64,000 nucleotides of DNA from Arthrobacter sp. OY3WO11 (GTDB taxonomy: Bacteria; Actinomycetota; Actinomycetes; Actinomycetales; Micrococcaceae): the NCBI RefSeq assembly GCF_001641125.1, contig NZ_LWLP01000001.1, positions 2,590,079 through 2,654,078 of the forward strand. Reading direction: 5' to 3'. Below the pieces are notes generated by a model that saw only the letters and a program-made list of their open reading frames with translations, had not been told where the DNA came from and made no database searches. The translations under genes and the position numbers were made by a program. Shown here piece by piece: positions 1 through 7,832 of the stretch (its first letter is position 1; each line of letters starts with the position of its first letter).

Positions 1-668
1 GGCTCGCGTCCTGCGGCACGCAATGCCCAGTAACCGCCCATCGAGATTCCCACCAGGGCAGCCTGGTCCAGCCGGAAGTTGTCCAACACCGCCCCAACCG
101 GCTTTTCCCAGTCGTGGTCGAAGGTGAGTCCGTTTAACGTCCGCGCACGGCCTTGGCCCGGCCCCTCGAAGGCAACCACGGTGAAACCTGCGGCCGCGAT
201 CCTTTGGCAGATGGGGAAGAACTCCTCGATCAGGGAGTCGAACCCGCCGTGCAGCAGCACCGTGCCGCCGTTTCGTGGGCCGGACGCCGGAAGCGAATAG
301 GCCGGCAGCGACGCCCCGCCGTAGGGGATGTTGTGACGTGTCAGTCCAGCACCGAATGCCGTGTCGAAGAGCTGCAGGTAGCGGCGGTAGCGGTCCGTTT
401 TCTCCACTGACCGTGGTGGTGTGAAGAACTCCGCGATCCTCGCGTAACCCGCCGCCTGCCGGTGCCGGTCCTCTGCTGCGGCCCGGTTGGACAAGGTCTC
501 GAACACGGCCGCGCAGTCATCCATCCCCCGCACGTGTGGTGCGGCGCTGAGCAGCTCATCCCGGTCGGCGAAGCCCAGCGCATGTGCGCGGTTGAGTTGG
601 TAGTGAATGAAGTCCCGCCGGTGGAACCGTTCGAATCCCACCGGCAGGGCAACAAGCGCTGGGCTCAT
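1..668 (-). CDS. alpha/beta hydrolase family protein (3' part cut by window edge)
   Basis: The minus-strand frame is open from an ATG at 668 to the window edge (222 codons), so the C-terminus is missing. The N-terminal ~120 residues are helical. The hydrolase fold follows, with LLHGGFDS (oxyanion region), a strand ending VVAFEGPGQG, and the nucleophile elbow GISMGGYWAL (G-x-S-x-G, Ser nucleophile). This layout resembles FrsA/dipeptidyl-peptidase-like esterases with an N-terminal cap. The catalytic Asp and His would lie beyond the edge. The start is coupled to the upstream gene: its TGA and this ATG share one base (TGATG). The substrate cannot be inferred. Confidence 0.8.
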   Translation of the reverse strand, partial: MSPALVALPVGFERFHRRDFIHYQLNRAHALGFADRDELLSAAPHVRGMDDCAAVFETLSNRAAAEDRHRQAAGYARIAEFFTPPRSVEKTDRYRRYLQLFDTAFGAGLTRHNIPYGGASLPAYSLPASGPRNGGTVLLHGGFDSLIEEFFPICQRIAAAGFTVVAFEGPGQGRARTLNGLTFDHDWEKPVGAVLDNFRLDQAALVGISMGGYWALRAAGRE

Positions 669-940
669 CACTGCCCAGCTTGTGTGGTTCCAAACATCAG
701 GGTCCGCCGCCGCACATCGTAGTAGACGGTGTCTGACCGTTTCAGGAGGCCATGGAGGACCTCGGCATCTTCGGCGTCGAGCGTGAGCACTTCTTCCCAG
801 GCCCCTTGGTCGAGGACCAGCTGAAGGGTCCACGTACCAGGCTTTCCTGCGTCTCCGGCCACCCAGCTGAACTGGTAATGGTTGACCTGCCGGACTTGGA
901 TGCTGTCATCTGTGATCGGTTGTTTTGGCGTGGGGCTCAT
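668..940 (-). CDS. small conserved-looking hypothetical protein (90 aa)
   Basis: A 90-residue protein beginning MSPTPKQPITDD. I do not recognise a named family. The body reads as a beta-rich domain (HYQFSWVAGDAG, GTWTLQLVLDQ, EEVLTLDAEDAEVLHGLLKRSD), with no Cys pairs, membrane segment or signal peptide. A longer in-frame ATG exists at 985, but the ATG at 940 has a GAGGAGGGG ribosome site six bases upstream, so I chose it. The TGA overlaps the ATG of the downstream hydrolase by one base, implying translational coupling and a shared role. Confidence 0.6.
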   Translation of the reverse strand: MSPTPKQPITDDSIQVRQVNHYQFSWVAGDAGKPGTWTLQLVLDQGAWEEVLTLDAEDAEVLHGLLKRSDTVYYDVRRRTLMFGTTQAGQ

Positions 941-1009
941 GGTCCCCTCCTCGTTTCGCTGTGGCGGGCCCGCTGCATAAGCCAAGCACCAATCTAGACC
1001 TGGTGTACC

Positions 1010-1624
1010 TCATGATCCAGAGCCGATTGATTCAGCCCGGTCGCGGAGGTTCAGCAGCATTTTGCGCATCATCCAGAAGTCGCCGAACTCAAGAAGAAGA
1101 GAGAAGGCGATGGTGGGTGAGAGCCACCGGTACCGAGAACGAACGCGGCTGATTAACCGCGTTGAACCGTCCGAACAAGGGTCGAGTTGCCACGTCCAGG
1201 TGGTGTCACCGGGCGTACCCCAGATCATGGACCTAGGCGCGTCGATCGCCTGTACTGGCATGCCGTGCTTGCCGTCGGGACTCATTGGCACGATGTCGCC
1301 CACGGCGAGGTTCTGGAGTTCCGGAATGATTCGCCGGGCGCTGGGGCGGCCCAGGTTGTCGAGGATGTCGTAGCTGTACCAGCCGGCCCGGGTGAGTCCG
1401 GCCTGGACCAGCCACGGCCAGATCCGCTCCGGTGGCGCGCCAACCGTGATGACCCGCGTGGCGTTGAACGTTGGCCTCGGCACGAGGTCGTCGCCGGGCA
1501 AAGACCGCGCGACCTCTTCCGGCATGGCGCCCCAGTGGAGCTGCCAAGGACGCACGTACCGGGCATACGTTGTGATCGCAACGGACGCTGCGATCACTAT
1601 GCTCCAACGCAGGTGGGCTTGCAT
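1010..1624 (-). CDS. SRPBCC (START-like) family protein with N-terminal membrane anchor
   Basis: A 204-residue protein. Residues 8-20 form a short hydrophobic segment (IVIAASVAITTYA), then a START/polyketide-cyclase-like ligand-binding domain follows: APPERIWPWLVQAG, the middle block NLAVGDIVPMSP, and a C-terminal amphipathic helix. It is clearly paralogous to the protein at 3903-4631: both share LPGDxLxPxP, APPxxxWPWLVQ, RAGxYSY and LAVGDI. SRPBCC proteins bind hydrophobic ligands; nothing here identifies one. A GTG directly precedes the chosen ATG and could be the start instead; neither has a strong ribosome site. Confidence 0.72.
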   Translation of the reverse strand: MQAHLRWSIVIAASVAITTYARYVRPWQLHWGAMPEEVARSLPGDDLVPRPTFNATRVITVGAPPERIWPWLVQAGLTRAGWYSYDILDNLGRPSARRIIPELQNLAVGDIVPMSPDGKHGMPVQAIDAPRSMIWGTPGDTTWTWQLDPCSDGSTRLISRVRSRYRWLSPTIAFSLLLEFGDFWMMRKMLLNLRDRAESIGSGS

Positions 1625-1682
1625 CACCCAAGTATGTCCGTCACTCCCCTGCCGGTTCCAGAGGCCAAACGTCCCGGCCAGT

Positions 1683-2504
1683 TCAGCGACCGCCGAGCCC
1701 CTGAAGGATTGCTGCGCCCCATTGCGCGCTGTTAGCCAGGATCACGAACCCGACTGCCGGAACGCTCAACGCCCAGGCTGCCTGCCGCCGTCGTGCCTGG
1801 TCCACAAGCAGCCGGAGGGAAGTAAAGCTGCGTTGAAGGGCCGGCAGATCGGTCATGGCAGGAGGCTGCCGGCACCAGGTCCCCGGCTGAACGGCCGCCT
1901 GCGCGATCTGTGCCACCTGCTCCGTACCCAGCACGGGCTGCAACTGGCGCAGCCAGGCAAGGAGCCGCGCCTCCCTCACCACAGCCACGCGCTCGGGCCG
2001 CGCTTTGATGGTTAACTTCTTCGGGTTGACGATGACGACGACGCCGGTCACCTCGACATGGAAGCCAGCCGCGGTGCTCAGAAGCTTTGCTGCCCGGGCG
2101 GCTTCGTGCGCAGAGCAAAGAAGGTGCCGCGTCCTCTTTCCCGCAACCAGGAGTGCCCGCCCGGCCACCCAGACAGGCTGGCCGGAGTGGTTCTTGGTGT
2201 TCAAAGTAAAAACTCCCGCCGGCCCTACCAGCACGTGGTCTATATCCGCGGAGCCTGTGCCCACCGGTACTGCATGCAAGACCAGCCACTCGGGGCCGAG
2301 CCCCTCAAGGATTCGCCCGACGGCGATCTCGCCGAGCGCCCCCTTGTACCACGTTATGGTTTCCGGTCTGAGCGGGCTGGCACCAAACACCCGCTGCAGC
2401 CATTTACGGGGCGGAACGCGGCTTTGGAGCGCCATCAACTCTTCGATCACTGCCTGCCCGGGAACCCGCTCGCCCAACTGCAGTGGTGTGGCATCAGCGC
2501 TCAT
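1683..2504 (-). CDS. NERD-domain (nuclease-related) protein with C-terminal membrane segment
   Basis: A 273-residue protein. Roughly residues 50-150 match a NERD domain: the opening GALGEIAVGRIL helix, then a strand with DIDHVLVGPAGVFTLNTKNH carrying the acidic/lysine positions (D-x-D...K) expected for restriction-endonuclease-like folds. The C-terminus has a hydrophobic segment (AWALSVPAVGFVILAN) that may anchor it. NERD is often described as a predicted nuclease domain, but most members are untested. The start at 2504 has GGGAGA six bases upstream; the frame continues to 2708 but the extra N-terminus looks non-coding. It lies between two SRPBCC paralogues, a context that gives no direct role. 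Confidence 0.78.
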   Translation of the reverse strand: MSADATPLQLGERVPGQAVIEELMALQSRVPPRKWLQRVFGASPLRPETITWYKGALGEIAVGRILEGLGPEWLVLHAVPVGTGSADIDHVLVGPAGVFTLNTKNHSGQPVWVAGRALLVAGKRTRHLLCSAHEAARAAKLLSTAAGFHVEVTGVVVIVNPKKLTIKARPERVAVVREARLLAWLRQLQPVLGTEQVAQIAQAAVQPGTWCRQPPAMTDLPALQRSFTSLRLLVDQARRRQAAWALSVPAVGFVILANSAQWGAAILQGLGGR

Positions 2505-2682
2505 GGCCGTCTCCCAAACTTTCGGATGCTGGACAGCGTAGATCGGGAAGAGATCGAAAAACAGCCGCAAAGGGCCCTGATCCTGAATGCTTCCCGAATA
2601 TTTGCCCAACGTTGAGCCCTTCTTGCGGGAGCGTGAATTTGGTGCCTTAGCCAAGACCTCGCAGCCTCCTGCTACGTCCCTT

Positions 2683-3549
2683 CTAGGGCAGCCCGTCCGC
2701 TGCGCCAAGTCCGCGCCGGGCGACGACGTACCCCCAGAGCAACAGCGCGTGTGGACGCGTTCCCCGCCAGCTCAGGGGGACAGAAAAGCCGTCCCGCTCC
2801 ACAACAGTGGCTGACCACCGGCGGCGTACCAGCCCGGGCCGGCGGAGTCGGACATTGTCGAGGTAGGCGTACGGGATCCATCGCCCTGCGTGTTGCTTTG
2901 CAAGCCTGACTGCACGCGCCGACGTCACGGTGGCGCGCTGAAAGCGGGGGTTTTCGCCCTGGTCCAACGGACCATGCGGAATGGTTCCGGCGGGCAGGAT
3001 AAGGATGCCGTTCATGTTGACCCACACTTGAACCCGCCTGCCATCGCTGGCGGCGTCCCCGGAAACCAGCCGGCACAGGTCATCGTCCTCTTCAGGTTCC
3101 ACTGACTGCGGCGGATGGGACGCAGTGGCTGAGGTGTCCGGCTGGTCCGCGAAATAGGGGTCATGCGCCCTCACGTTGGCAGCTGCGACAGCCTGCATCA
3201 CGGCTGCGCGCAATCCATCAGCGCACAACCGGGGCGCGGCAACGGCGAACACCTCCCGGTCGAGCTGTACAACCGAGCGGACGCCGGCCTGCCCACCCAA
3301 GAGTTCGGCCAGATCGTCATGGTCGGGGCGGACAAGCAGGCCAACTTCATCGCCCAGTCCCACCTGCCAGCTATGGCCGGCAATCTCGGGTTCGGTCTCG
3401 AGCTCCACATCGATCCAGTCCGCCAACTCCACCGCACCAACCGGTCTGAGATCCTCCCCTGCAATGCACGGCCTGAGGAGTCCCAGACGGTGCAAAAGAT
3501 CAGTGGTGTGGACAGTACAGTCATGCTTGTGCGGTCGGTGCTGCACCAT
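2683..3549 (-). CDS. hypothetical protein (288 aa)
   Basis: I do not recognise this protein. The first half looks like a secretion-chaperone-like alpha/beta domain (EIAGHSWQVGLGDEVGLLVR, ELLGGQAGVRSVVQLDREVF, GLRAAVMQAVAAANVR). A short acidic linker (EPEEDDD) follows, then a second domain with several strands and many Arg (VQVWVNMNGILILPAG, RWIPYAYLDNVRLRRPG). There is no signal peptide. The start has GGGGGAG five bases upstream. It is followed, 178 bp on, by the NERD gene on the same strand, so the two may be co-transcribed. The domain impression of the first half is weak. Confidence 0.6.
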   Translation of the reverse strand: MVQHRPHKHDCTVHTTDLLHRLGLLRPCIAGEDLRPVGAVELADWIDVELETEPEIAGHSWQVGLGDEVGLLVRPDHDDLAELLGGQAGVRSVVQLDREVFAVAAPRLCADGLRAAVMQAVAAANVRAHDPYFADQPDTSATASHPPQSVEPEEDDDLCRLVSGDAASDGRRVQVWVNMNGILILPAGTIPHGPLDQGENPRFQRATVTSARAVRLAKQHAGRWIPYAYLDNVRLRRPGLVRRRWSATVVERDGFSVPLSWRGTRPHALLLWGYVVARRGLGAADGLP

Positions 3550-3902
3550 CAGGCTCCCCCAGGATTAGTGCGGGCCAGGACCTGGACGCCCCAAACGGCA
3601 GGCGCCCCGGTTCGCTTCCTGGGTCCACATCGAGATGACATCGAATAAGCCGGTTTCGAAGTGAGTTCGATACTAAGTCATCCCACCTGGGGAGATGCAG
3701 GTCCCAGACCAAAACTTTTGATCCGGCACGTGGGGATGTTGCCGTGCTGCATCTGCACCGCTGGCAGCCGTGTCAGTTCCAAGGGACCTTGGGCTCTGGG
3801 GGCCGGGCCGGCCGGGCCGTAATGTCATGGCATCCAGGATTTCCGTGGCGGTGTGCACAGGTTCCGTAGGATGCCCGGACACTTACCTCAGGAGACAGGA
3901 AG
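3550..3902. other. 353-bp intergenic region between divergent genes
   Basis: No convincing coding frame. It must hold promoters for the minus-strand gene starting at 3549 and the plus-strand SRPBCC gene starting at 3903. A -10-like TAGGAT sits at 3867-3872 on the plus strand, but I found no good -35. Around 3630-3670 the motif TTCGA/ATCGAA recurs at least four times, which could be a repeated operator or chance. Confidence 0.4.
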
Positions 3903-4631
3903 ATGCTTTCACTTCGAACCGCGGACCACCGCAGAACGGCCCGCATTCCGGGGCGTTGGGTTCCGGGAGCCATCGGGACCGCAATGGCTGTCGGTGTCCT
4001 TACCCACGTCGTGCTGCCCCGTCTTTTAGGTAGGTGGGGTGCTGCCGGGTCAGAGGCGGGTATGCCGCTTCCAGGGGATCACCTGATCCCTGAACCCGAC
4101 TCCGTGCAGACAATGGCAGTGACCATCTCCGCGCCGCCAGCGCAGGTATGGCCCTGGCTGGTGCAGATGGGGGTTGACCGGGCCGGACTGTACTCGTACA
4201 CGTGGGTTGAGAACGGACTGCTCCATTTGGGCGTAACCAACGCAGATAGGATCCACCCGGAGTGGCAGGACCTCGCAGTAGGCGACATTATTGCCTTCAC
4301 GCCCGCCCGTTACCCCGGAGGGCGCATGGGGCCCCGGGTAGTGGAGCTGGAGAGCGGCCGGCACCTCGTTCTCGACGCAAGCCCTGGCGCGCCGCCGGGC
4401 ACGGTCACCGGAACGTGGCAGTTCATCCTCCACGAAGCGGACGACGGCGGGACGCGGCTGCTGCTGCGGACACGCAGCGGCCCGGGCCGGCCCGCAGCGC
4501 TGCGCTTCATGGACTTCCTGCTGCAGCCGGCTTACCTGGTCATGGATCGCGCGATGCTGTTGGGCATCAAACAGCGCGCTGAGCGGGAGGCGCAGAAGGA
4601 CTATGGCTATGCGGAAAGCCCGCTCAGCTAA
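3903..4631 (+). CDS. SRPBCC (START-like) family protein, paralogue of 1010-1624
   Basis: A 242-residue protein with an N-terminal hydrophobic anchor (GAIGTAMAVGVLTHVVLPRLLG, residues 22-43 approx.) and a START-like domain. Shared blocks with the first paralogue are LPGDHLIPEPD, APPAQVWPWLVQMG, RAGLYSYTWVEN and LAVGDIIAFTPA. A strong AGGAGACAGG ribosome site precedes the ATG. Its last eight bases overlap the 3' end of the convergent membrane-protein gene (4624-4631). It probably binds a hydrophobic small molecule near the membrane; the ligand is unknown. Confidence 0.75.
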   Translation: MLSLRTADHRRTARIPGRWVPGAIGTAMAVGVLTHVVLPRLLGRWGAAGSEAGMPLPGDHLIPEPDSVQTMAVTISAPPAQVWPWLVQMGVDRAGLYSYTWVENGLLHLGVTNADRIHPEWQDLAVGDIIAFTPARYPGGRMGPRVVELESGRHLVLDASPGAPPGTVTGTWQFILHEADDGGTRLLLRTRSGPGRPAALRFMDFLLQPAYLVMDRAMLLGIKQRAEREAQKDYGYAESPLS

Positions 4632-5490
4632 CTCCGGTTCGGGCGCCTGGCGATCGGGATAAGGCGAGCGCCCATCCACCTGCGATTCCAATGGCAAGCA
4701 GTACGGTGATGAAGCCGATCACCGGTGCGCTTGGCCATGTCAGGGCACCTCCATACCGCAGCAGGGCGAGCGCCTGCAGAATGACAAAGGCAATGGAGGT
4801 CAGGGCCACGGGGCGGACGGCGCGGAGATCGGCGCTGGACTGGCCCTGCGCAGCGGACCATCCCAGGCCGACCAGCCACGCTCCGATGGCCCTCGCCGTC
4901 AGCTCGGACAGCGTCCACGGCCACCACGTCGCGGCGTAAGTAGGCACCGCCAAAAGCGCCACGCCGTATAACAGCAGTACCCCGGCGATTCCCACCATAA
5001 GCAGCCGGAGCGCAGGGGGCAGCACCGGCCGTCGCGGCGTCACGGACGTTAGAGCAGGACGCCGGGAGCGGTTCTGCAACCAGCTGATCACGAGCATCGC
5101 CACGGGCACGGTGGCATAAATTGCCAACCAAGCCCAGGTGGCCACCTGGGCAAGTGCGCCAGTGTCCGGCGACAAGTGAAAACGATCGAGATGAAGCAGC
5201 GTGACTCCGAGAGTCAGCGTGGTGAAGACGAACACGGGCCAGACTGCCAGCCTCGCTGACTCCCAACTCGCTGAGCGGGCGCCCGCTATCTCCAAGCCGG
5301 CGGCCGACCAGTATGCGGCCCCGAGGAAGACGGCGGTCATGGGCGGATTGACTGTCCACGCGAACCATTCCGCAGTCCGTAGCGGAAACACGAACAGCAC
5401 CAGCCCGGCAAGGAACACGAGGAATGCAGCGACGTAGAGCAGCAGCCGCATCGCCGGAATCAACGGTGTGACCTCAGCTGAAGCGGGCAT
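4624..5490 (-). CDS. integral membrane protein, about 8 transmembrane segments
   Basis: A 288-residue highly hydrophobic protein with repeated membrane stretches (LLLYVAAFLVFLAGLVLFVF, VWPVFVFTTLTLGVTLL, AWLAIYATVPVAMLVISWL, LLMVGIAGVLLLYGVALLA, PVIGFITVLLAIGIAGGWAL). WFAWTVNPPMTAVFLGAAYW near the N-terminus recurs weakly in the second half as YAATWWPWTLSELTARAIGAWL, suggesting an internal duplication. I chose the ATG at 5490 because GAGGAG lies ten bases upstream; it overlaps the upstream fusion gene by 17 bp. A second candidate start is at 5451. Function unknown. Confidence 0.7.
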   Translation of the reverse strand: MPASAEVTPLIPAMRLLLYVAAFLVFLAGLVLFVFPLRTAEWFAWTVNPPMTAVFLGAAYWSAAGLEIAGARSASWESARLAVWPVFVFTTLTLGVTLLHLDRFHLSPDTGALAQVATWAWLAIYATVPVAMLVISWLQNRSRRPALTSVTPRRPVLPPALRLLMVGIAGVLLLYGVALLAVPTYAATWWPWTLSELTARAIGAWLVGLGWSAAQGQSSADLRAVRPVALTSIAFVILQALALLRYGGALTWPSAPVIGFITVLLAIGIAGGWALALSRSPGARTGVS

Positions 5491-7234
5491 CACCGGGCAG
5501 CTCCTCGGGTACTGCCACCCCACCCGGGGGAAAGGCGGGCAGGGGGTGCTCGGCCAGGTAGGTGTGGAGCATCGAGACCACGGTGGCCCCGTCCCCGACG
5601 GCAGTAGCCACCCTTTTGATCGAACCGGCCCGCACGTCGCCGATCGCGAAGATGCCGGGCATGCTGGTTTCCAGGGCCAGTGGATGCCTGCCGGGCCTGA
5701 TGGACCCGGCGTCATTCACCTCCCGGTTGGCGCCGGTGCGGAGGAAACCGGCCTGGTCACGCTCTACGGTGTCGGGCAGCCAGGAGGTCCGCGGCACCGA
5801 ACCGATGAGCACGAATAAACCGCCGGCTTCGATCTCCTCGCTCGGCGTTGAGTCGGGGGCTCCGGGTGCGGCGACCTTGACCGCGGCAAGGAATCCGTCC
5901 CGGTCGCGGGCACCCATGATCACGGTGCCATAGCGGATCGCAACGTTCCTGGTGGCCTCCAGTTGGGAGATGAGGTATTCCGACATGCTCACCGACAGAG
6001 TGGGTCCACGCACCAGCAGCGTCACCTTCTTCGCAAATTTCGCAAGGTGCAGGACAGCCTGTCCGGCCGAGTTGCCGCCGCCCACAACACAGACGTACTT
6101 TCCGGCCATCGACGGTGCCTCGGAGACAGTGGCCCCGTAGAAGACGCCCCTGCCCACCAGATCCTCTACTTGGGGTATGCCTATGCGGCGGTAGTCCACG
6201 CCGGTGGCCACCACCACTGTGCGGCACCGCACCACGCTGCCATCGGAAATCGACACAGAATACAGTGCTCCGTCCGCGCCGAGGCCCTCCACCTTCCGCA
6301 AGAACAGGAAGTCCGTGCCCAAAGTCCAGGCCTGGTGAAACGAGCGGTAGGCCAGGTGGGCGCCGCTGACACCGCGGGAGAAGCCAGGGTAGTTGCGGAT
6401 CAAGGAACTGGTGCCGGCCTGGCCCCCAACAGCTTCTCCCTCCACCACCATGGTGGCGAGGCCCTCCGAGGAGGCGTATACAGCGGCCGCAAGACCGGAG
6501 GGACCGGCTCCCACCACAACCACATCAAAGATCTTGTCCGCCGGTGGCGGTCGCGTCACGCCCATCGCTTCGGCGATCTCCAGGTCACTGGGGTTCTGGA
6601 GGACAATTGGTGAAGTGGTGAACTCCAGCACCAGAACCGGCAGCCTGGGGTCGCGCAGGCCCAGGCTCTCCAGCGTCCTTTCCGCGGTCTCGGACCCGGC
6701 AGCGTGGAAGCCCACCGGGATGTGGTTTCGGCTCAAGGAATCGCGCAGCCAATGGGTCCTCTCGTCGCCAACCTCCCCGATCAGCCGGACCGCCTCGAAC
6801 CCGACGCCCTGTGCCAGGTGCCAGTCGTCAAGGGCGTCAGTGATCGCCCCGTGGAATTCTTCGTCGCGCGCTCGTTCGGGTCGTATGATCAGCAGCTCCG
6901 CGTACCCCTGCCCGATCGCCCGGAATACAGTGGGGGCGCTGGCGAAGTCACCCCAAGTCACCACAACTGCACGTTTTGCGGCCGGGTGAAAGCCATAGGC
7001 ACGACGCAGGAAATCAAGGCCACCGCGATCCGCCGGTCCGTAGCATCCGAGTATGAGCGCGACCGGGCGATTCCAGCGCCGGAGTCCCTCAAGCACCGCC
7101 CGCCCGTGGGCGTGTCCCTCGCAGGCCACTACCTCGTAATCGGCACCGTAGCGTCGGCGTAACTCATCTCCGAGAATGCGCCGTGAGTCCGAGTCTGTGG
7201 TGGCAATCAGCATGATCGGAACCGAGTGCTCCAT
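5474..7234 (-). CDS. fused response-regulator/thioredoxin-reductase-like flavoprotein lacking redox cysteines
   Basis: A 586-residue, three-part protein. Residues 1-140 are a degenerate receiver domain: the strand that normally ends in the phospho-acceptor Asp reads ALILGCYGP (residues 59-67). Residues ~150-225 resemble a thioredoxin/glutaredoxin fold without a CxxC. Residues ~235-570 are a pyridine nucleotide-disulfide reductase core with FAD motif GAGPSG (242-247), NADPH motif GGGNSAG (385-391) and C-terminal AIGDVRAGS. Where thioredoxin reductase has CATC the sequence is FYGATVSEA (365-373), so no dithiol is present. It probably still binds FAD and NAD(P)H; electron acceptor unknown. The family is known as an actinobacterial fusion; this member looks doubly degenerate. 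Confidence 0.85.
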   Translation of the reverse strand: MEHSVPIMLIATTDSDSRRILGDELRRRYGADYEVVACEGHAHGRAVLEGLRRWNRPVALILGCYGPADRGGLDFLRRAYGFHPAAKRAVVVTWGDFASAPTVFRAIGQGYAELLIIRPERARDEEFHGAITDALDDWHLAQGVGFEAVRLIGEVGDERTHWLRDSLSRNHIPVGFHAAGSETAERTLESLGLRDPRLPVLVLEFTTSPIVLQNPSDLEIAEAMGVTRPPPADKIFDVVVVGAGPSGLAAAVYASSEGLATMVVEGEAVGGQAGTSSLIRNYPGFSRGVSGAHLAYRSFHQAWTLGTDFLFLRKVEGLGADGALYSVSISDGSVVRCRTVVVATGVDYRRIGIPQVEDLVGRGVFYGATVSEAPSMAGKYVCVVGGGNSAGQAVLHLAKFAKKVTLLVRGPTLSVSMSEYLISQLEATRNVAIRYGTVIMGARDRDGFLAAVKVAAPGAPDSTPSEEIEAGGLFVLIGSVPRTSWLPDTVERDQAGFLRTGANREVNDAGSIRPGRHPLALETSMPGIFAIGDVRAGSIKRVATAVGDGATVVSMLHTYLAEHPLPAFPPGGVAVPEELPGDARFS

Positions 7235-7469: not shown

Positions 7470-7832
7470 ATGGAGGACCGCCCTATCCCGGGAATCAGCC
7501 TTACCGCCACACCCAGTGGAACGGGGTGTCTGGAGTGCCTCAGCGGTGACGGCCCGGGATGGTGGCTGCATCTTCGTCGCTGCGCCCAGTGCGGCCACAT
7601 CGGATGCTGCGATTCATCACCCTCCCAGCACGCCAGTGCCCACGCGCGCACCGCCGGACACCCGGTCATGAGGTCCTTTGAACCCGGGGAGGACTGGTTC
7701 TACAACCACACCACAAAGAAGTTCTTCCGTGGTCCGCGGCTTCCGGATCCTGAGTCCAGGCCACCGGAGCAGCCCTCACCTGCACCGCCAGACAAGGTAC
7801 CGGCAGACTGGCGGGAGCGCATCCACCGGTAA
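7470..7832 (+). CDS. UBP-type zinc-finger domain protein
   Basis: A 120-residue protein consisting almost entirely of a ubiquitin-specific-protease-type zinc finger. Ligands visible are Cys20, Cys23, Cys38, Cys41, Cys46/47 and a His-rich stretch (His54, His58, His64), followed by the aromatic strand EDWFYNH. The C-terminus is proline-rich and disordered. In eukaryotes this fold binds the free C-terminus of ubiquitin; bacteria have no canonical ubiquitin, so the partner here is unknown. The start at 7470 has GGAGG five bases upstream; an in-frame ATG at 7452 is also possible. It is divergent from the receiver/reductase fusion, with about 235 bp between starts. Confidence 0.82.
   Translation: MEDRPIPGISLTATPSGTGCLECLSGDGPGWWLHLRRCAQCGHIGCCDSSPSQHASAHARTAGHPVMRSFEPGEDWFYNHTTKKFFRGPRLPDPESRPPEQPSPAPPDKVPADWRERIHR

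What the first reader, a model, noticed from the sequence alone, without database searches (positions are those of the whole stretch)
5474..7234. Receiver/thioredoxin-reductase fusion without redox cysteines or phospho-Asp
In the reductase domain the CATC-type dithiol position reads FYGATVSEA (365-373), while FAD and NADPH loops are intact. The N-terminal receiver has ALILGCYGP where the phospho-acceptor Asp should end its strand, and the middle thioredoxin-like part also lacks CxxC. If correct, the whole protein has lost disulfide chemistry and phosphorylation but kept nucleotide binding, suggesting an NAD(P)H/FAD-reading sensor or a reductase for a different acceptor.
Basis: partly seen in the sequence, partly recalled or inferred. 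Interest (0 to 1): 0.62.

Follow-up and report, generated by a model that had tools for sequence, protein, structure and literature searches.

The report
Dithiol-free flavoreductase with Cys pseudo-receiver
An Arthrobacter-like bacterium carries a thioredoxin-reductase-like protein whose whole family lacks the usual disulfide-reducing cysteines, and whose control domain has a conserved cysteine where its relatives have a phosphorylation site; it travels with a zinc-finger protein best known from ubiquitin biology, so it may belong to an unexplored signal-gated redox module.

Summary
In detail: window 5474-7234, minus strand, encodes a 586-aa receiver / Grx-like / thioredoxin-reductase-like fusion without CxxC or phospho-Asp, with FAD and NAD(P)H motifs intact. 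'Lost' needs splitting. Absence of CxxC belongs to the whole family (100/100), whose sister group is a Grx-TrxR fusion with both dithiols. Loss of the phospho-site is younger: 28 of 31 relatives with an intact receiver have a cNMP-domain histidine kinase next door, 1 of 52 without. A second branch carries the cNMP domain itself. In this protein's clade the phospho-Asp is a cysteine in 33 of 34 genes, with a second cysteine in 34 of 34. Genomes with the family usually hold a zf-UBP zinc finger: 123 of 128, against 29 of 118 others in one class; here it is the divergent neighbour and the only one in the genome. Best reading: a signal-gated NAD(P)H:flavin oxidoreductase with a non-disulfide acceptor and zf-UBP as partner, controlled without phosphorylation in this clade. 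Catalysis, acceptor, partnership and cysteine switch are inferred, not shown.

The parts
5474..7234 (-). Receiver / Grx-like / thioredoxin-reductase-like fusion (P0001, 586 aa)
6860..7219 (-). Pseudo-receiver, residues 6-125: Cys64 at the phospho-Asp position, Cys38, Thr12-Thr13 in place of the acid pair, Arg118 in place of Lys
   Evidence: strand/helix order of a receiver in the model; PF00072 does not hit P0001 but hits its relative L042 at 2.4e-14
6551..6799 (-). Degenerate Grx/Trx-like domain, residues 146-228, no CxxC
   Evidence: the sister group has CPDC or CSDC here
5549..6538 (-). FAD/NAD(P)H reductase domain, residues 233-562, with YGATVSEA where TrxR has CATC-DG
   Evidence: PF07992 2.3e-30; model fits TrxR 5mh4 with TMt 0.93, rmsd 2.2
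7470..7832 (+). Divergent zf-UBP protein, 120 aa, the only zf-UBP found in genome G000
   Evidence: PF02148 6.2e-11; start codon at 7470 (an ATG 18 nt upstream is possible); genome search
4624..5451 (-). Helical membrane-type protein, 275 aa, 22 nt downstream of the reductase stop, probably one operon; no Pfam or NCBIfam match
   Evidence: all helices, low confidence; the same gene was found behind the reductase in 27 of 34 genes of the clade

Best explanation
An enzyme-type response regulator that no longer uses phosphorylation. The C-terminal part binds FAD and NAD(P)H and most likely passes hydride equivalents from NAD(P)H to FAD and on to an acceptor that is not a disulfide, since the dithiol that would carry electrons is missing in the whole family. 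In many relatives this activity is probably set by a cyclic-nucleotide signal, through a fused cNMP domain or through a cNMP-domain histidine kinase that phosphorylates the receiver. In this clade the kinase and the phospho-site are gone, and the receiver is kept as a phosphorylation-independent control domain with a cysteine at the old phospho-site. The zf-UBP protein is the likely partner (acceptor or adaptor). SHOWN here: sequence features, phylogeny, kinase linkage and its absence, zf-UBP linkage and co-occurrence, purifying selection. INFERRED: FAD binding and catalysis, acceptor, cNMP as the ligand, phosphotransfer in relatives, role of the cysteines, partnership with zf-UBP.
For: FAD/NAD(P)H motifs invariant in 23 of 23 aligned rows. 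All three parts under purifying selection. The predicted model fits TrxR in the FR conformation (5mh4, TMt 0.93, rmsd 2.2) far better than the same enzyme in FO (5mjk, TMt 0.63, rmsd 8.0). Tree: canonical TrxR; Grx-TrxR with both CxxC (99/93); CxxC-less family (100/100, stem 0.68), split into cNMP-fused (99/92) and receiver-fused (92/95); within the latter a pseudo-receiver branch (100/97) holds this clade (100/100). Fused cNMP domain: over the Pfam cut-off in 10 of 10 proteins tested. Adjacent kinase: 28 of 31 intact receivers against 1 of 52 non-intact; two kinases tested carry cNMP_binding and HATPase_c; no ortholog in G000. zf-UBP co-occurrence: 123 of 128 family genomes against 29 of 118 others in the class of the window; 11 of 17 against 4 of 63 in Acidobacteriota. 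The ten class genomes whose best hit is a Grx-TrxR with CxxC have no zf-UBP. Three of seven annotated plasmid regions viewed show a UBP zinc finger next to or in line with the reductase.
Against: No biochemistry exists here, and a pure sensor would conserve the same motifs. The fit to the FR form is a property of a model made without ligands. The kinase/phospho-site correlation is close to a single event on the tree, so 52 rows are not 52 independent losses; flanks differ (about 1.4 to 6 kb as a rule, less at contig ends). Co-occurrence was not corrected for shared ancestry, membership in the class was by score (E below 1e-120), not by reading every sequence, and zf-UBP counts include fusions to antiporters. 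L108 and L109 have intact receivers and about 4 kb of downstream flank but no kinase nearby. In Acidobacteriota 6 of 17 family genomes lack zf-UBP, one of them (G334) scoring like a Grx-TrxR and not read; of the 11 with both, only G338 has them side by side. Five of the 127 family genomes in the class lack zf-UBP. Four of seven annotated plasmid regions (Nostoc, Deinococcus, Caballeronia, Gloeothece) list no UBP zinc finger within 4.5 kb. L034 of this very clade has none in its genome.
Confidence: 0.5

Rival explanations
1. Non-catalytic sensor: the reductase domain reads the NAD(P)H/FAD redox state by changing conformation and signals to zf-UBP or to the co-directional membrane protein, without net turnover.
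For: No dithiol and no family-wide conserved cysteine; linkage to zf-UBP and to a membrane protein; in two actinobacterial loci the neighbour is a Na+/H+ exchanger with a C-terminal zf-UBP (L041; L091), which would suit a signalling role.
Against: NAD(P)H and flavin-site residues are invariant, and the model has the hydride-transfer-like form; neither excludes a sensor.
Confidence: 0.27
2. A TrxR-like ferredoxin/flavodoxin (or ferric-iron) reductase.
For: TrxR-like FNRs also lack CxxC (PMC10294844, passages).
Against: PDB sequence matches are to chains named TrxR first (2.6e-41, against 4.5e-13 for the first chain named FNR); the tree places the family with Grx-TrxR, although no FNR was put into it.
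Confidence: 0.12
3. Still a thiol system: the two receiver cysteines, or the cysteines of zf-UBP, stand in for the lost dithiol.
For: C38 and C64 conserved in 34 and 33 of 34 clade genes; zf-UBP has several conserved cysteines.
Against: No other receiver row has a cysteine at either place, and the zf-UBP cysteines are expected zinc ligands (family knowledge).
Confidence: 0.08
4. A decaying pseudo-enzyme.
For: Patchy presence: 6 of 37 same-genus genomes carry the receiver type, 5 others the cNMP type.
Against: omega 0.02-0.37 in every part, and full-length genes in 34 distinct clade members.
Confidence: 0.03

Closest known systems
Low-Mr thioredoxin reductase (TIGR01292, TrxB)
   Same: Fold, FAD and NAD(P)H sites; best PDB matches
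   Different: No CxxC; 193.9 bits against a cut-off of 343.45; two extra N-terminal domains
Grx-TrxR fusion proteins (sister group found here)
   Same: Same order of Grx-like and reductase domains; sister in the tree
   Different: Eleven sequences read keep CPDC/CSDC and CATC and show no N-terminal signal domain; their ten genomes lack zf-UBP
REC-thioredoxin reductase response regulators ('Mycobacterium-like' in PMC5847659, passages)
   Same: Same architecture
   Different: The passages list the fusion only; they discuss neither CxxC, kinase, zf-UBP nor Asp loss
Aspartate-less receivers, Cys-ALR group (PMC4395418, passages)
   Same: Cys at the phospho-Asp position
   Different: The 26 Cys-ALRs there have other outputs (DsbA, HTH, GGDEF and others are named in the passages); words beginning 'thioredoxin' or 'reductase' do not occur in the main text
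TrxR-like ferredoxin/flavodoxin reductases (PMC10294844, passages)
   Same: TrxR-like fold without CxxC
   Different: Sequence closer to TrxR than to FNR; 'response regulator' does not occur in that paper
Bacterial zf-UBP mini-proteins (PMC2602986, passages)
   Same: The neighbour belongs here by PF02148; that survey lists zf-UBP as a conserved hypothetical group in Acidobacteria, Actinobacteria and others
   Different: The passages name no reductase partner

Membership tests
Low-Mr thioredoxin reductase | FAD/NAD(P)H two-domain fold | tested here: met
Low-Mr thioredoxin reductase | Redox-active CxxC in the NADPH domain | tested here: not met
Low-Mr thioredoxin reductase | TIGR01292 curated cut-off | tested here: not met
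   193.9 of 343.45 bits
Phosphorylatable response regulator | Phospho-Asp, acid pair and Lys of the receiver | tested here: not met
   Cys64, Thr12-Thr13, Arg118; Arg118 in 35 of 35 clade rows; the third acidic position, Asp14, is kept in 35 of 35
Phosphorylatable response regulator | Receiver fold | tested here: met
   five alternating strand-helix units over residues 7-142 of the model and alignment with PF00072-positive L042; PF00072 itself misses P0001
Cys-ALR (aspartate-less receiver) | Cys in place of phospho-Asp | tested here: met
   33 of 34 clade genes (its 35 rows count the window gene twice)
Cys-ALR (aspartate-less receiver) | Redox control through that Cys (suggested, not defining) | not testable with these tools
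   needs protein
TrxR-like FNR | TrxR-like fold without CxxC | tested here: met
TrxR-like FNR | Reduces ferredoxin or flavodoxin; FAD-stacking residue on the C-terminal helix | not tested
   activity needs protein; the stacking residue was not examined; sequence is nearer to TrxR
zf-UBP (neighbour) | PF02148 over its cut-off | tested here: met
   42.8 bits against 22.7; solved relative 2ida, E 2.3e-20

The most novel reading that the evidence does not exclude
A widespread bacterial signalling module: a dithiol-free flavoreductase with interchangeable input domains (cNMP domain, phospho-receiver driven by a cNMP-domain kinase, or Cys pseudo-receiver) that works together with a bacterial UBP zinc finger. 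In this clade, control of the flavoenzyme moved from a phospho-Asp to a cysteine switch at the very same residue.
Probability: 0.25. Interest if true: 0.78.

Novelty: new variant of a known kind. Interest (0 to 1): 0.52.

Why it matters
It turns proteins annotated as 'thioredoxin-disulfide reductase' or 'FAD-dependent oxidoreductase' into a testable non-disulfide family, gives bacterial zf-UBP proteins a candidate partner, and offers a natural series (intact receiver plus kinase, cNMP fusion, Cys pseudo-receiver) for asking how a receiver lives on after losing phosphorylation.

Tried and rejected
CxxC elsewhere in the protein: none, and no cysteine column is invariant in the 23-row alignment. 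Chance or decay: rejected by omega and by full-length homologues. A relocated cognate kinase in G000: ten matches, the best 44.9 bits, over the ATPase part. Structure of the neighbouring membrane-type protein: mean pLDDT 57.6, no use. Literature: searches gave 0 papers for their terms; one search listed 25 of 60 papers, none of those 25 with 'zf-UBP' or 'UBP-type zinc finger'; the 12 titles name no bacterial system; some searches gave the related papers cited. I found no paper on this fusion with its kinase or zf-UBP in that open-access library, which misses most subscription papers. Not run: a tree-corrected co-occurrence test, an FNR outgroup, a search of family genomes for an additional Grx-TrxR. 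The 41 adjacent pairs in 34 genomes come from a hand-copied part of two truncated lists and are a lower bound, not a rate.

Full report
CHECK. The ORF lies at 5474-7234 on the minus strand, 586 aa. Only four cysteines occur (38, 64, 337, 382). Pfam finds Pyr_redox_2 at 236-549 (2.3e-30) and nothing N-terminal of it. TIGR01292 scores 193.9 against a cut-off of 343.45 bits. AlphaFold (mean pLDDT 81.4) gives a receiver-like, a Trx-like and a TrxR-like part.

CxxC IS MISSING FROM THE WHOLE FAMILY. Relatives came from a scan of species genomes (72 loci, canonical TrxRs included), 59 genomes of genus and order, the own one included (20 positive at 1e-40), and 246 genomes of the class. In the 100 rows aligned, CxxC is absent from both the Grx-like and the reductase place in 99; the exception, L055, is a Grx-TrxR. 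The nine canonical reductases of the first alignment all have CxxC in the reductase place, as expected; two of them (L002, L003) are in the own genome. No cysteine is invariant in the 23-row alignment, while FAD and NAD(P)H residues are.

ANCESTRY. In 246 class genomes the best profile hits fall into three bands: 127 genomes below 1e-120, 11 between 1e-120 and 1e-80, the rest weaker or none. Ten of the eleven carry a Grx-TrxR fusion; all eleven sequences read from them have CPDC or CSDC in the Grx part and CATC in the reductase part. The eleventh, G244, is a split CxxC-less member. In a 72-row tree of Grx-like and reductase domains ten of these sequences with L055 form the sister (99/93) of the CxxC-less family (100/100, long stem 0.68). 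L145 was left out as a cut frame, and FNRs were not included. The family splits into a cNMP-fused branch (99/92) and a receiver-fused branch (92/95). The receiver branch splits into 19 rows with intact receivers (88/97) and a pseudo-receiver branch of 23 (100/97) that contains the clade of this protein (12 rows, 100/100; Micrococcaceae, Brevibacterium, Nocardioides). Of the cNMP-type proteins, 10 of 10 tested pass the Pfam cut-off for cNMP_binding.

THE RECEIVER. Of 83 full-length rows (L001 is the window gene itself), 31 have the acid pair and the Asp, and 28 of these have a histidine kinase within 1.5 kb. The three without are L108 and L109, with about 4 kb of downstream flank, and L044, whose contig ends 226 nt on. 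Of the 52 rows lacking the acid pair or the Asp, one has a kinase-like gene nearby (L049, 56.6 bits, opposite strand). The two kinases tested carry cNMP_binding and HATPase_c; G000 has no ortholog. On the tree this is close to one correlated event. A small side branch has a class III nucleotide cyclase next door (gene cluster shared by L083, L084, L131 and L133; PF00211 tested in L084). In the clade of this protein the phospho-Asp is Cys in 33 of 34 distinct genes (L027 has Gly) and position 38 is Cys in 34 of 34; none of the other rows has Cys at either place (whose 35 clade rows count the window gene twice). In the 49 other receiver rows the site is Asp 45, Gly 2, Glu 2. The Lys is Arg in 35 of 35 clade rows, and one acidic residue (Asp14) is kept in 35 of 35. 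Nine pairwise comparisons give omega 0.02-0.18 for the receiver, 0.10-0.37 for the Trx-like part and 0.07-0.22 for the reductase, so the changed receiver is maintained.

THE PARTNER. A zf-UBP gene (PF02148) starts at 7470 on the plus strand, divergent from the reductase, and is the only one found in G000. In the clade, 23 of 34 rows have it within the fetched flanks. Of the 11 without, ten genomes were searched: nine have it elsewhere, one (L034) has none; L011 was not searched. In 246 genomes of the class, with G244 moved to the family, 123 of 128 family genomes have zf-UBP against 29 of 118 others (Fisher 2e-34, not tree-corrected). In 80 genomes of the phylum of L042 (Acidobacteriota) it is 11 of 17 against 4 of 63 (1e-6), side by side only in G338. 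The ten genomes whose best hit is a Grx-TrxR have none. In L041 and L091 the reductase's neighbour is a Na+/H+ exchanger with a C-terminal zf-UBP. Annotated plasmids, seven regions viewed: reductase next to an 'ATP-binding protein' in Nostoc, Deinococcus, Caballeronia, Gloeothece and Streptomyces, followed in the last by a UBP zinc finger; a divergent UBP zinc finger beside the reductase in Burkholderia; J-domain protein, CbpM, ClpB, TrxA, UBP zinc finger, cNMP-TrxR in line in Rhodococcus. Thus 3 of 7 list a UBP zinc finger within 4.5 kb; the plasmid gene table is incomplete. Downstream of this reductase, 22 nt after its stop, lies a helical membrane-type protein of no known family that was found behind it in 27 of 34 clade genes.

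MECHANISM. The model matches the FR form of TrxR (5mh4, TMt 0.93, rmsd 2.2), not the FO form (5mjk, TMt 0.63, rmsd 8.0); that NADPH meets the flavin in FR and the dithiol does in FO is recalled. With invariant nucleotide sites and no dithiol, hydride transfer to FAD and delivery to a non-disulfide acceptor is the most economical reading; a pure conformational sensor is next. cNMP control in relatives follows from domain content, not from an assay. That the cysteine at the old phospho-site is a redox switch is a possibility, helped by the Cys-ALR group (PMC4395418, passages) and by redox-controlled pseudo-receivers such as RitR (PMC12632262, passages; there the active cysteine lies in the linker).

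KNOWN OR NEW. The receiver-TrxR fusion is in print as an architecture (PMC5847659, passages), as are Cys-ALRs, and zf-UBP mini-proteins in bacteria (PMC2602986, passages). The family-wide absence of CxxC, the Grx-TrxR sister, the cNMP-kinase pairing, the loss of kinase and Asp with Cys in its place, and the zf-UBP linkage were not found by the searches.

Noticed in passing
L155 (Rhodococcus pyridinivorans plasmid pA), locus 1-6313: The cNMP-type reductase and its UBP zinc finger sit in line with J-domain protein, CbpM, ClpB and TrxA, which hints at a link to protein quality control.
   Followed up: no
L041:3786-5627 (+) and L091:3150-4619 (-): CPA-type Na+/H+ exchangers with a C-terminal zf-UBP next to the reductase; several other zf-UBP hits lie in open frames of about 620-720 aa that may be the same fusion.
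   Followed up: partly
4624-5451 (-): Conserved helical membrane-type protein without a Pfam or NCBIfam match, behind the reductase in 27 of 34 clade genes.
   Followed up: partly
1010-1627 (-) and 3903-4631 (+): Two proteins that look alike by eye, the second a weak Polyketide_cyc2 match below its cut-off; they may be paralogues.
   Followed up: no
Genus of the window: Of 37 same-genus genomes 6 have the receiver type and 5 others the cNMP type of the reductase; none shows both at E below 1e-40.
   Followed up: no
L015:5728-6072 (-): The zf-UBP frame of this relative ends inside the finger, possibly a frameshift or sequencing error.
   Followed up: no
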